DNA of 50,383 nt, taken from NCBI GenBank assembly GCA_025055295.1, contig JANWWW010000004.1:1-50383 (forward strand). Reading direction: 5' to 3'. Under the pieces are notes generated by a model. It did no database searches and had not been told where the DNA came from. It saw only the letters and a list, made by a program, of their open reading frames with translations. Position 1 is the stretch's first letter, and every line of letters starts with the position of its first letter. Both the position numbers and the translations under genes were made by a program. The stretch comes from Deltaproteobacteria bacterium (lineage in GTDB: Bacteria; Bdellovibrionota_C; UBA2361; JANWWW01). This document shows, piece by piece, positions 11,959 through 50,383 of the stretch.

Positions 11959-13988
11959 CTTGTCTTTAGCAGCAGACTTAAACCTAAAGCGCATAGACCC
12001 AGAACAGTTATCTCTCCAAGAGTGTCAAAGCCCCTAAAACCCACAACTATAGCATTGACAACATTTTCCGCTTTTAAAATTGGATAGGCGTAAGCCAAAT
12101 AATCTTCTTTAACCCGGCTTTCGGCTAGGTTTTGCTCGAGGCTTAAAATAAACATCATAGCTCCAAAAAGTGTCGCAACTATAAAACGTCCCGTTTGAAA
12201 TTTAATTTTGGGAACGATTTTAAACGGAGGAAGCTTGCTTAAGGATACAGCAATCAGCCCTAGCCAAAGCATATCAACGAAAAATGAGGTTAAAGCCAAG
12301 TCAGGGGCGCCATAGAGTAAAAATGCAAGGTTGCCGGCAAGGCTTAATAGCGCAACAGACAAGACAGTCATTAGTCTCGACTGAGATCTTACAACAAGGA
12401 AAGTGCCAACGGTAACGAGGGAAAGGAAGAGGCAAAGAGTAAGCGTTATCCGTAAAGTTAAGCCCTCTAAAAACAAGGAAGTTTTAACAATAGCGCCAAA
12501 GGTCAGTATCGAGACAAAAAAAAGCACAAGATAGTAGTTTAATTTCTGAGGCTGGAAAAATTTGTGAAAAATCACAAACAGCATTCGCATACACTTATTG
12601 ATGTGATCAAAATAGTATGGCGTCAGGTCGTAAGTTGGGTGAGATAATGCTAGCACGGAACCTCCCAAAAGGATAAAAATTTCCAAAAGTCTTGGCAAAT
12701 CGCCAAACTCCGTTGGTCTTTCGGGAGATAAGTTTAAAGACTGAAACTGCCCCAAAACCAACACAATCACTCCCACTAACAGACAGTTTGTTCCCAGGGT
12801 CGACACCCGTTCCGATTTCTTCGACACTAAACTAATAATCAGCCTCATTCCAAATCCGGTCAGAAAAAAAAGGCTGACTACATTCGAAAAGCCGGTTAAA
12901 AAAAATTTGCTCTGATCGAATAGATCCAAAACCAAGTTAGCTTTTACAACCTCCGTTATTGCCGGCTTTATTCCCAAAATCGTTATCAAAGGGATTAGGA
13001 TCAACATTTTCTCAAACCGCGAGAAAGCTTTGCCAAAATCGTCAACACTCACAAGCCGAGTTCTTATTAACATAATTCCAAACAAGGAGAATAAAACACA
13101 TTTGTAAAGGCCGTGATTAACCAAATAAAAACTGAAGCTGGCGTTGTCATTTGATCCCAGAAAATAGGCCATTAAACCTATCGATGACAAGGTCGTATAA
13201 GCCAAGGAAATTTTCAAATTGTTCGAGTAAAAAGCCTTGTAACTGTACAAAACAGCGGAAAGCGCTCCCAGCCATACCAAAGACTCCGAGAAGAAACTTT
13301 GGTAAACAAGGTTGGAGAAAAGAAATCCAATGTACAAGCCTAGTTTTACTAAAGTGGCTGAATGAAGGAAAGCACTAACAGGTGTTTCGGCGCACATTGC
13401 GGCAACCAACCAATATCCAAACGGAAAAATTGCGCTTTTGGCTACAACAGCAATAAGGAAGGCAAGTTGAGTTTGAAAATCAAGATTCCAAAAATCTTCT
13501 GAGTTTGAGAGGGATACAACGTCCGCTGTGGAGAAAATCTGATAAAGACGCAAAGAAAAGAAAATAAATGCCAAACCTGATATTACAGTTGAAAGAAGCA
13601 CAATCTTTGCGGAAACGATATTTTTTTCATGCCTCGAATATCTCACCAACAAATAAGAAAATATGTTTGTAAGCTCAAAAAAGAAAAGTAAGCTAAATAG
13701 ATTTGTCACCGCGAAAATAAAAAAGCAATTAAATGCAAAACACAGAAGAACAAAGTTGTTCAACCATGAGAAATTCTTTTTCTTATAATAAAAATGCGCA
13801 AAACTTGCCACGATCACGCAGCATAAGCCAAGAAGAAGCAAGAATGGCCTGTTTTTGTTCCAGACACTTATGTCAATCCAAAAATCTCCAAAACTTACAA
13901 GTTCGAAATAAAACTCTGAGGATAAGGATAAAATGGCTGAAGTTATTCCCAACAAAATAAAAATGATCGTTGTTACCAGTCTCATCAA
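11955..13988 (-). CDS. mnhA: Mrp-type Na+/H+ antiporter subunit A
   Basis: 677 aa; 'WLVAAMCAETPVSAFLHSATLVKLG', 'GAPDLALTSFFVDML' and C-terminal 'VGFRGFDTLGEITVLGLCALG' are MnhA hallmarks. Confidence 0.93.
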   Translation of the reverse strand: MMRLVTTIIFILLGITSAILSLSSEFYFELVSFGDFWIDISVWNKNRPFLLLLGLCCVIVASFAHFYYKKKNFSWLNNFVLLCFAFNCFFIFAVTNLFSLLFFFELTNIFSYLLVRYSRHEKNIVSAKIVLLSTVISGLAFIFFSLRLYQIFSTADVVSLSNSEDFWNLDFQTQLAFLIAVVAKSAIFPFGYWLVAAMCAETPVSAFLHSATLVKLGLYIGFLFSNLVYQSFFSESLVWLGALSAVLYSYKAFYSNNLKISLAYTTLSSIGLMAYFLGSNDNASFSFYLVNHGLYKCVLFSLFGIMLIRTRLVSVDDFGKAFSRFEKMLILIPLITILGIKPAITEVVKANLVLDLFDQSKFFLTGFSNVVSLFFLTGFGMRLIISLVSKKSERVSTLGTNCLLVGVIVLVLGQFQSLNLSPERPTEFGDLPRLLEIFILLGGSVLALSHPTYDLTPYYFDHINKCMRMLFVIFHKFFQPQKLNYYLVLFFVSILTFGAIVKTSLFLEGLTLRITLTLCLFLSLVTVGTFLVVRSQSRLMTVLSVALLSLAGNLAFLLYGAPDLALTSFFVDMLWLGLIAVSLSKLPPFKIVPKIKFQTGRFIVATLFGAMMFILSLEQNLAESRVKEDYLAYAYPILKAENVVNAIVVGFRGFDTLGEITVLGLCALGLSLLLKTR

Positions 13989-16011: not shown

Positions 16012-17556
16012 GTGCAAGACGGTTCCATATTCTTGGGACGGTACATCATTATCCGTAAGCTTGGCTCTGGAGCGATTGGGACCGTTTACCTCGTCTGGGA
16101 CCGAGTTTTGGAAATCGAGGTGGCTCTGAAAATTATACCGGCTGCCCAAGACACAGTTGAATTCAAACGTTTTCAAAGAGAGGTACTTTCTGCACGCAAG
16201 GTTAGCTCAAGATATGTTGTCAAAAATTTTGAGTGTGGAGTTACCGACACCCACTTGTTTCTTGTTAACGAATATGTGAAAGGGGGGAGCCTTAGGGAAT
16301 ATCTAAAACAGAAACCCCTGTCATTCGAGGTTAAGCTCGAAATATTCAAAAAAATTATTGAAGGTCTTATTGCTCTCCATGACAAAAACATAATTCACAG
16401 GGACATAAAACTGAGCAACATTCTGTACGATCCTGAAGAGCATATACCTAAGATTGGCGACTTAGGAATTGCAAAAGTCGGAGACTTGATGGCCACGTCT
16501 CAAGCTGATTTTATAGGCTCAGCAACACATATGGCTCCTGAAATATGGAGAGGGGAACAAGTTACAGTAAAAGCTGACATATATTCCCTTGGAGTCTTAG
16601 CTTACGAGCTCTTTGCAGACAGTTTGCCTTTTTCCGCTCAAGACTTGCAGTCAATGATGAGAGCCCACTTACACAGCAAGCCTTACAAACTTTCAGAACT
16701 ATCCGAGGACAAAATCCCGGCTGAATTTGATGAAATAATTTCCGCGTGCCTTGTAAAAACCCCGGAATTGAGGCTATCTGCTGGACAAATTCTTTTAAAG
16801 CTCCAAGCTCTTGACACAATGACTACTATTGCCAGCGATTTTGCTGTAAATCAAACTCCGAAGAAACGTGAAAATCTTGTTTTTTGGAGAAAAAGCGTCA
16901 CGCAAACTTCGGGCACCTTGCCTAACGCAGAAGCAGGCGAACTTATCCATCTTAAAAAAAGCGCTTTGCAGAGCCTTATCATGTTTATTTTTTTACTTGC
17001 CTTTTCCACCGGCCTGCCGAATCTGCTTTTCTTTTTCAGATCAACCGAGTTTGCGAAGCTTGTCCCAGGATTAGCTGTTTTGGCTTTGATTTTAGTACTT
17101 TGGTTTTTTGGAACCTGGCTCCTAAGAAAAAATAAAACAGTTAGGCTTGCATATGCTTTTTTGGTTTTGCTCTTTGGACTTCCGGTTCTTAAAAGCGCTT
17201 TCAGTGTTGAAATTTACTCAACGGACTCTGAAAGCTATCTTTATGTAACCAAATCCCTGACACTCGCTTTTGTGGAAGAGTTTTTTTCATATTTTTCTGC
17301 GTCAACCATCGAAAACTTAAATCCGTCTTTTTTGCTGCTTTTTTGTGGGTTTCTAATTGGTGGTTTTTTTGTTGAAAATCGGATTACTTTTTTGGCTTGT
17401 TTCGTGATACTCATGGTTATTTTTGTGGTTTTTTTGAATGTTGCTGCTTTGTATACAAATCTGCCGGTTTACTTAACCGGTATTACTTCCATTACGTATA
17501 TGCTTTTTGCGTTAAGACTGTCAGTGAGTTTTGCAACGCATAGAATGTTAAATTAA
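16012..17556 (+). CDS. Serine/threonine protein kinase with C-terminal multi-TM region
   Basis: LGRYIIIRKLGSGAIGTVYLVWD...VALKII...IIHRDIKLSNILYD...KIGDLGIAK...IGSATHMAPE...DIYSLGVLAYEL; hydrophobic segments after about residue 320; GTG start. Confidence 0.93.
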   Translation: MQDGSIFLGRYIIIRKLGSGAIGTVYLVWDRVLEIEVALKIIPAAQDTVEFKRFQREVLSARKVSSRYVVKNFECGVTDTHLFLVNEYVKGGSLREYLKQKPLSFEVKLEIFKKIIEGLIALHDKNIIHRDIKLSNILYDPEEHIPKIGDLGIAKVGDLMATSQADFIGSATHMAPEIWRGEQVTVKADIYSLGVLAYELFADSLPFSAQDLQSMMRAHLHSKPYKLSELSEDKIPAEFDEIISACLVKTPELRLSAGQILLKLQALDTMTTIASDFAVNQTPKKRENLVFWRKSVTQTSGTLPNAEAGELIHLKKSALQSLIMFIFLLAFSTGLPNLLFFFRSTEFAKLVPGLAVLALILVLWFFGTWLLRKNKTVRLAYAFLVLLFGLPVLKSAFSVEIYSTDSESYLYVTKSLTLAFVEEFFSYFSASTIENLNPSFLLLFCGFLIGGFFVENRITFLACFVILMVIFVVFLNVAALYTNLPVYLTGITSITYMLFALRLSVSFATHRMLN

Positions 17557-17629
17557 AAACCGTTTTAAATATTTATAAGTCGCTAATATCTAGCAATTTA
17601 ATGAAAGCGCTCGGTAAAATACTAAGTGG

Positions 17630-17703
<74 letters not shown>

Positions 17704-29067: not shown

Positions 29068-29225
29068 TAAGAATTTGTAACGTAATTGCAAACGATAACA
29101 CTATATACTGTTGAAAGATTATGTGAAATTTACAACATCAGCGCCAACTCAACACGTAAGTTCTACAGAACTCGCTAAAATTATCATGAACGTCTTTTTA
29201 TTTGTGTAACTTTGACTTTTAGCAT

Positions 29226-29835
29226 GTGGTAATAGAATATCGAAGGAGGAACAAGCCAAGATTGTATGGAGGCGCTGAAAAGGTTTTTACGAAAACCCCT
29301 AGCTTTGCAAGGAGGCCGTCATTGGGACTAAAAAATACCAAAGAAACCCCGAACGAAGGAACTACTGTAATGGTACTTACAAAAGACTTGTTAAAACAAC
29401 CCTGGGTGACATCGAAATTAAAATACCTCGTGACAGAAATAATAGTGAGTATAAACTAGTGTTATTAAAAAGAAGAAAAAGAGGTTTTATGAGATTACAG
29501 GAAGAAAGTGTTCCCCTTTCCAGAGATGGGGCTTAAGGAGTTAAAGGCTAAGTGGAATGGGAAGTATCCAGATGTAGTGCGTATGTGGGAGAAGGACTTT
29601 CAATCTATAACATCTTTTTTCAAGTATCTATCTGTTTGAGTTTAGAAGACTTATTGCGACTACTAATGTTATTGAGAGTGTCAACAGCAAGTTAAGGAAG
29701 GTCTTGTATGCCAAGGGGTCTATGCCTCAAGAGAGGCTGTTAAGGTATGTTATGGTATTTACTTAGACCTTTATAAAAGGTGGTCGAGGGACGGTATTCC
29801 TAAATTCGGCGTTTTATGCTTGTTTTAAATTTAGA
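29226..29835 (+). pseudogene. IS256-family transposase remnant (copy 1), internally deleted and frame-shifted
   Basis: N-part 'RRNYCNGTYKRLVKTTLGDIEIKIPRDRNNSEYKL' (cf. 'NGY..KT..T.LGEIEI.IPRDRN..FEP') followed shortly by C-part 'GLKELKAKWNGKYPDVVRMWEKDFQSITSFFKY...FEFRRLIATTNVIESVNSKLRKVLYAKGSMPQERLLRYV'. Confidence 0.8.
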
Positions 29836-48805: not shown

Positions 48806-49619
48806 TTCGAAGCTTTTTATTTAATTATCTTTATGAATAAGCAATTTGGTTCATTTGAAAGCAGAAAAAAAGTCTGACTCTCTCGCAGAATGCCCGCTCA
48901 AATTCAATCGTAAAAACTTTTTGCCGTAAAAGGGGTAAAATTGGCAAAAATGAGGTTTGGACAACTAGATACCCCAATTTCAGAAAGAGTAAATGTAGCT
49001 AGTCTGCCTTGAGTCACAAATTTCAAAAGATTTTTTTCAAAGAAAGAATAATTAGCAATATCAGAAATTCCTGTGCAAAAATTCAGTATAAAATGCATTC
49101 TTGGTATCTTGATTTTGGGTCGTTGGCGAACGAAACGATAAAAAAGTTAATTTGTAAGCAGTTTTTCCCGTACTCGTACTTCAAACTTCATGGTTGAAAC
49201 GTGTAGTGATAGAGCACGTGAATTCTTCAAAATTTGATTTTCAAAGGTTAACAATTTTAGAACTTTTTAGCCCGACTAATATTAAAGAAGGCGAAAACTG
49301 TAAAGGGTAAATTCAGCTTTGATTTAGACCTGACCCAAGAGCCTTCAAGTAAAACTATTCAAATAATTTGACCAGTCCTGACTACGCAAGTTTGATAAGT
49401 CTTAAGAGGATCCGGGAAATTATAACCAAGCATGTTTGCAAGTCAGTCGCAACTGACTTACCTCTCTACATGTCCACTTTCACGATTAAGTCACTTGGAT
49501 TTACCTTAAACAAATCACCCCTATTACTATACCACTCCTTTATTACCTCCCATAGACTACTGTAACTAGGACTTCCCTTTATTCGTGTAAATTTGAGTTG
49601 CAATAGAATTGGAAGTGGT

Positions 49620-50120
49620 TAAGAAGTCATGAAGTGGAAATGCGTGGAGCCCATGAAAAATTTCTTACAAACAACCAAGTGGGGATAAAAAATACGGAAA
49701 GAGCTCTAAACGAAGGAACTGCTGTGACGGTACACATTCAAGATTTATAAAAACACTAAACCGATAAATTAAAGTTGCCGGAGACAGAAATGAGAAGTTT
49801 AAATTTTTTAGTGTTATTAAGTTGACCCAGGGGCTTGAGGAGTTTAAGGTTAAGTGAAACGAGAAGTATCCAGATGTTATGAGAATGTGGGAGAAGGACT
49901 TTCAGTGTATTACATCCTTTTTCAAGTATGCGTTTGAGCTTAAATGACCTATTACTAATCCAAATGTAATCGGGAGTGTCAACAGTAAGTTAAGGAAGGT
50001 ATTATACGCAAAAAGGTCAAGGCCTCAAAATACCTTCTTGACGTTTGTTACGCTGTTTACTTCGACCTAGATAAGTTGTGAGCCATACACAGTATCCCTA
50101 ACTGGCGTATAATCAACAAG
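49620..50120 (+). pseudogene. IS256-family transposase remnant (copy 2), internally deleted, stop-interrupted
   Basis: 'RRNCCDGTHSRFIKTLNR*IKVAGDRNEKFKF...' then 'GLEEFKVK*NEKYPDVMRMWEKDFQCITSFFKYAFELK*PITNPNVIGSVNSKLRKVLYAKRSRPQ'; nucleotide similarity to copy 1 at 29226-29835 is obvious by eye. Confidence 0.78.
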
Positions 50121-50383
50121 CAACCTCAAATTTTATCTGACGAGTATAAGTGAGTGTCTTCGAATTAAGACAACTAAAAAAGCAATTTTGGAAATTATGA
50201 ATTTTTTCCTAAAGTAAAAAATAACACTTTCATTTATTACTCTATAAAATAAATTTTCCACAATATCACTCAAAACATATTAATTAAGTTAATCAATCCA
50301 CATGATATTCCGACAATGTGTCTAAATTTTTGTTTGATCCCTCGAAAAAATTCCATGACCATTATAACCCATAAATAGCAGGC

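What the first reader, a model, noticed from the sequence alone, without database searches (positions are those of the whole stretch)
49620..50120. Second IS256 fossil shares almost the same internal deletion: possible mobilised deletion derivative
Copy 2, same orientation and about 20.4 kb away, also jumps from 'GDRNEKFKF...AGTGTTATTAA' to 'GGGGCTTGAGGAGTTTAAGGTTAAGTG'. It keeps the same left flank motif (AGTGTTATTAA) as copy 1. Two independent copies losing the same block suggests either a non-autonomous (MITE-like) deletion derivative that spread in trans before decaying, or a recombination-prone junction.
Basis: partly seen in the sequence, partly recalled or inferred. Interest (0 to 1): 0.6.

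Follow-up and report, generated by a model that had tools for sequence, protein, structure and literature searches.

The report
Mobilised internally deleted IS256 transposon fossils
The two decayed jumping-gene remnants in this window lost their middle through two different deletions, but each deletion recurs in other copies around the same genome, so shortened elements probably spread with a borrowed transposase; this is well-known behaviour for bacterial insertion sequences.

Summary
In detail: window 29188-29803 and 49568-~50190 are decayed IS256-family elements, same strand, both lacking the central transposase region. They do not share one deletion. Copy 1 keeps ~50 nt more on the left, and the joins differ. 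In the whole genome (~20 IS256 fossils) each join recurs. Type A (copy 1) is in 4 copies. Type B (copy 2) is in 3 exactly and probably 2 more. Left-end and right-end trees both split the elements into two subfamilies; A lies in one and B in the other. So two deletion derivatives arose separately. Flanks are mostly unrelated, and several copies keep IS256-type inverted repeats (TGTAAA motif). The region holding D1, D2 and the helical insert survives in one decayed copy and part of a second. Best reading: non-autonomous derivatives spread by transposase in trans, with recombination between copies; transposition itself is inferred. Copy 2 is a mosaic: from 49893 to the contig end it matches contig C48 (one mismatch in ~490 bp), so its right half may belong to a rearrangement or a misjoin. 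No target duplications survive, no intact parent is assembled, and the elements (600-720 bp) are too long for classical MITEs. New members of a known kind; modest interest.

The parts
29188..29213 (+). Left terminal inverted repeat of copy 1 (..ACGTCTTTTTATTTGTGTAACTTT)
   Evidence: Matches the left-end consensus CCCTTTATTTGTGTAAATTT with 3 mismatches; core at 29197-29213
29188..29803 (+). Copy 1: IS256 type A deletion derivative, right end lost
   Evidence: 83% identical to the C51 copy over 29191-29803; PF00872 match 43-106
29458..29542 (+). Copy 1 type A junction: left stub (..VLLKRRKRGFMRLQEESVPLSRDG) joined out of frame to GLKELKAKW
   Evidence: Junction pattern found at C51, C84, C96 and C48 only, reversed-pattern control 0; alignments
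49568..49594 (+). Left terminal inverted repeat of copy 2 (..ACTTCCCTTTATTCGTGTAAATTT)
   Evidence: Consensus match with 1 mismatch; core at 49578-49594
49568..50190 (+). Copy 2: IS256 type B deletion derivative; right part mosaic with C48
   Evidence: 76% identical to C57 over query 3-542 of 561, through the junction; PF00872 match 288-358
49810..49849 (+). Copy 2 type B junction AGTGTTATTAAGTTGACCCAGGGGCTTGAGGAGTTTAAGG
   Evidence: Exact IUPAC-pattern matches at C57, C84 and C89, reversed-pattern control 0; variants in C66 and C61
49893..50383 (+). Segment matching C48:~17200-17691 with 1 mismatch (right end of copy 2 plus ~190 bp of flank to the contig end): recombination, duplication or misjoin
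50160..50190 (+). Degenerate right terminal inverted repeat of copy 2 (TTCGAATTAAGACAACTAAAAAAGCAA)
   Evidence: Aligns with right ends AATTTACACAATTAAACGGACA of other copies

Best explanation
Two subfamilies of one IS256-family insertion sequence in this genome each produced an internally deleted derivative. Type A is ~700-720 bp and includes copy 1. Type B is ~610-625 bp and includes copy 2. Both lost the part of the transposase carrying the first two catalytic aspartates and the helical insert, and both joins are out of frame in most copies, so neither could make an active transposase. Copies with both ends kept the terminal inverted repeats. Transposase from intact relatives is taken to have mobilised them in trans by the family's copy-out/paste-in route, after which all copies decayed and recombined with each other. 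Shown: the shared joins, the two subfamilies, mostly unrelated flanks, inverted repeats, and depletion of the central region. Inferred: transposition in trans, and the existence of an intact parent.
For: Type A join in C84 copy 1, C51, C96 and C48b. Type B join exact in copy 2, C57 and C89, variants in C66 and C61. Left-block and right-block trees separate the two subfamilies (100/99 and 98/99 support), with A in one and B in the other. Flanks share no similarity except C48a/C84b and an upstream repeat of another transposase at C51/C57/C126. Inverted repeats with TGTAAA, exact or nearly so, at both ends of C57, C51 and C96; the motif is noted for IS256 members (PMC7780238). Central region covered by one copy at profile positions 185-245; a 641-bp central query finds only C78, C111 and a short piece of C51.
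Against: No target-site duplication survives in any copy with both ends. No intact autonomous parent is assembled: C78 is decayed and C111 is frameshifted and cut by a contig end. Copies without the deletions (C106, C78, C54) lie inside the same subfamilies; type B as one clade on the right block is rejected at p=0.018, type A is not (p=0.10). So the joins may have moved partly by gene conversion.
Confidence: 0.75

Rival explanations
1. The joins spread mainly by gene conversion or ectopic recombination between resident copies, not by transposition of the deleted form.
For: Copy 2 switches to C48-identical sequence at 49893. The small hairpin region needs at least 5 changes of state on the left-block tree and the deletion occurs in both subfamilies. 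C89 carries a stretch like the other subfamily. Type B as one clade is rejected on the right block.
Against: Each large deletion stays within its own subfamily in both flanking blocks. Conversion alone does not readily explain why nearly all copies lack the central region.
Confidence: 0.17
2. A deletion hotspot removed the same block repeatedly after insertion of full-length elements.
For: The right endpoints of A and B lie within a few nt of each other, and a third class (C106) also lost the central region.
Against: Joins are identical to the base or nearly so in 3-4 dispersed copies each, which independent events would rarely give. The two left endpoints differ by ~50 nt.
Confidence: 0.06
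3. Assembly artefact from collapsed or misjoined repeats in a fragmented genome.
For: 139 contigs; C111, C112, C89, C58 and C126 end inside the element; the copy 2 right part is near-identical to C48.
Against: Most joins lie inside contigs (C51 is 86 kb, C57 24 kb, C66 17 kb, and C84 copy 1), and the copies mostly differ by 10-30%, too much to have been collapsed together. It remains possible for copy 2 from 49893 on.
Confidence: 0.02

Closest known systems
IS256-family insertion sequences (NCBIfam NF033543, Pfam PF00872; ISCth4 as the structural example)
   Same: Transposase fragments match NF033543 (E=3.8e-43 and 7.1e-28); inverted repeats carry the TGTAAA motif noted for the family (PMC7780238)
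   Different: These copies lack the region with D1, D2 and the C/DxxH helical insert, carry stops and frameshifts, and show no 8-9 bp target duplications
Non-autonomous IS internal-deletion derivatives and MITEs (for example MITECca01 from ISCca4, PMC9769881; MITEs described as IS derivatives mobilised in trans, PMC3189936)
   Same: Internal deletion of the transposase, retained inverted repeats, several copies alongside parent-type copies
   Different: 600-720 bp rather than under 300 bp, with long remnants of both ends of the gene; two separate derivatives from two subfamilies; strongly decayed

Membership tests
IS256 family | Transposase related to PF00872 / NF033543 | tested here: met
   Fragments of other copies score 147.8 and 97.6 bits against a whole-protein cut-off of 150, as expected for pieces; both window copies pass the PF00872 cut-off
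IS256 family | Terminal inverted repeats with subterminal TGTAAA | tested here: met
   Left ends of both window copies and both ends of C57, C51 and C96, some with a mismatch; copy 1 right end lost, copy 2 right end degenerate
IS256 family | 8-9 bp target-site duplication | tested here: not met
   No duplication better than mismatched flank pairs in five two-ended copies; age may have erased it
IS256 family | Intact DDE triad (needed for an autonomous member) | tested here: not met
   D1 and D2 lie in the deleted block, only the E region (TTNVIESVN) remains; stops and frameshifts. Expected for a derivative, so this bars 'autonomous IS256 element' only
MITE / non-autonomous IS derivative | Several dispersed copies sharing one internal deletion | tested here: met
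   Type A 4 copies, type B 3 exact plus 2 variants; flanks mostly unrelated
MITE / non-autonomous IS derivative | Length generally under 300 bp (classical MITE) | tested here: not met
   Core spans 701-716 bp (A) and 607 bp (B); limit from PMC3189936. So not filed as a classical MITE
MITE / non-autonomous IS derivative | Mobilised in trans by the parent transposase | not testable with these tools
   No intact parent assembled; needs an experiment or strain comparison

The most novel reading that the evidence does not exclude
The near-coincidence of the right endpoints in two subfamilies, plus a third class missing the same centre, reflects a recurrent, sequence- or transposase-driven way of cutting out the catalytic core of this IS256 lineage, so that it repeatedly produces non-autonomous parasites of itself.
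Probability: 0.08. Interest if true: 0.45.

Novelty: new member of a known kind. Interest (0 to 1): 0.27.

Why it matters
It documents, in an unnamed small genome (1.76 Mb assembled, 85% complete), an IS256 lineage that was nearly replaced by its own deletion derivatives before decaying, a plausible route by which an insertion sequence goes extinct. It also warns that copy 2 is mosaic, so adjacency at the right end of this contig should not be trusted without reads.

Tried and rejected
One shared deletion for both copies: rejected, the left endpoints differ by ~50 nt. Empty-site proof for C51, whose left flank lies in a repeat encoding another DDE transposase: the repeat does not resume on the right above shuffled scores. 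Target duplications: none. Relatives: no DNA match to the type A element in 45 other genomes of the class; the nearest proteins in named genomes are mostly 39-44% identical, one 54% over part of the query. The organism could not be named because own-genome records may be left out of that search.

Full report
Check of the observation. Both places are decayed IS256-family elements on the + strand, ~20.4 kb apart. Right blocks align at 78% over 249 bp (E=1e-53), with a 76-bp left block at 72%. Both lack the centre of PF00872: the copy 1 match ends at position 106, the copy 2 match begins at 288. But the deletions differ. Between the two motifs copy 1 has 59 nt, largely further transposase sequence, and copy 2 has 9 nt.

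Whole genome. PF00872 finds 20 matches in the window's own assembly, which is 1.76 Mb in 139 contigs and 85% complete; DNA searches with both copies add more pieces. Copy 1's join recurs at C51:54299, C96:998 and C48:27259, and nowhere else within 3 mismatches. Copy 2's join recurs at C57:3009 and C89:11534; C66 and C61 carry a variant of it. Reversed-pattern controls gave none. C106 is a third deletion class.

Two subfamilies. Trees of the left block (hairpin columns excluded) and of the right block (mosaic C84b/C48a excluded) both split the copies in two with strong support (100/99 and 98/99). Type A copies fall in one subfamily and type B in the other, so the two deletions arose separately. 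Copies without these deletions lie among them (C106, C78, C54), and type B as a single clade is rejected on the right block (p=0.018), so the picture is not a clean one-deletion-one-clade story. Gene conversion or mosaicism is the likely reason: C89 has a stretch resembling the other subfamily.

Anatomy. Left ends carry GG..CGTCCCTTTATTTGTGTAAATTT and right ends the complement of that type, AATTTACACAATTAAACGGACA. The TGTAAA motif is a noted feature of IS256-family ends (PMC7780238). Core spans are 701-716 bp for type A, 607 bp for type B, 638 bp for C106 and 1169 bp for the nearly full-length C78. The lost block holds the first two catalytic aspartates (LDCIY in C111, TDNLAG in C78) and the helical insert; the E region TTNVIESVN stays. 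The assignment of residues to D1 and D2 is by comparison with the family, not by experiment. Both joins are out of frame in most copies. A second, small deletion removes a hairpin (for example AAGCTCTGTTAGCAGAGCTT in C66) and is shared by C111, C112, C57, C84b, C61 and C107, across both subfamilies.

Depletion of the centre. At PF00872 position 65 six copies are present, at 185-245 one (C78), at 320-335 twelve. A 641-bp central query finds only C78, C111 and a short piece of C51; C54 and C106 keep ~95-150 bp of the centre's right edge. Random decay would hardly leave this profile; spread of already deleted elements would.

Copy 2 is mosaic. Up to about 49890 it resembles type B copies, C66 in particular. 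From 49893 to the contig end (50383) it matches C48:~17200-17691 with one mismatch, including ~190 bp beyond the element, whereas C48 has a different left side. This may be a real recombination, a duplication, a strain variant or a misjoin. The junction at 49810-49849 lies before the switch and is unaffected.

Mechanism. [quoted passage not shown] MITEs are thought to be IS deletion derivatives mobilised in trans by the parental transposase (PMC3189936). The same is inferred here. Not shown: target duplications, an intact parent, or transposition itself.

Verdict.

Noticed in passing
L106 (G000:C77:1-13490), 12400-13490: Two adjacent repeat arrays: a ~25-bp repeat GCCCTTTTCCCGTATAGTTACGGTG, 14 copies with different ~18-nt spacers (period 43), then a ~30-bp repeat ATTTAAATTCCATTAGGGTTCGATAATTAC with ~36-nt spacers (CRISPR-like). 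No cas gene was recognised by eye among the listed ORFs; no family search was run on them.
   Followed up: partly
L105 (G000:C48:26900-27300), C48:27176-27234: Two units of the same 43-bp-period repeat with one spacer directly abut the truncated type A IS256 remnant at C48:27235, as if an array fragment sat beside or inside the element.
   Followed up: partly
L001 (G000:C111:1-508) and L057 (G000:C112:7213-7345): Two contigs end inside an IS256 copy and are 98% identical over 142 bp, suggesting recent, unassembled multi-copy elements despite a frameshifting hairpin deletion.
   Followed up: no
L084-L087: G000:C57:2006-2766, C51:53742-53958, C126:4442-4748, C124:4977-5231: A repeat encoding part of another DDE transposase (PF13612 E=5e-10, PF01609) lies just upstream of, or is interrupted by, three of the IS256 copies.
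   Followed up: partly
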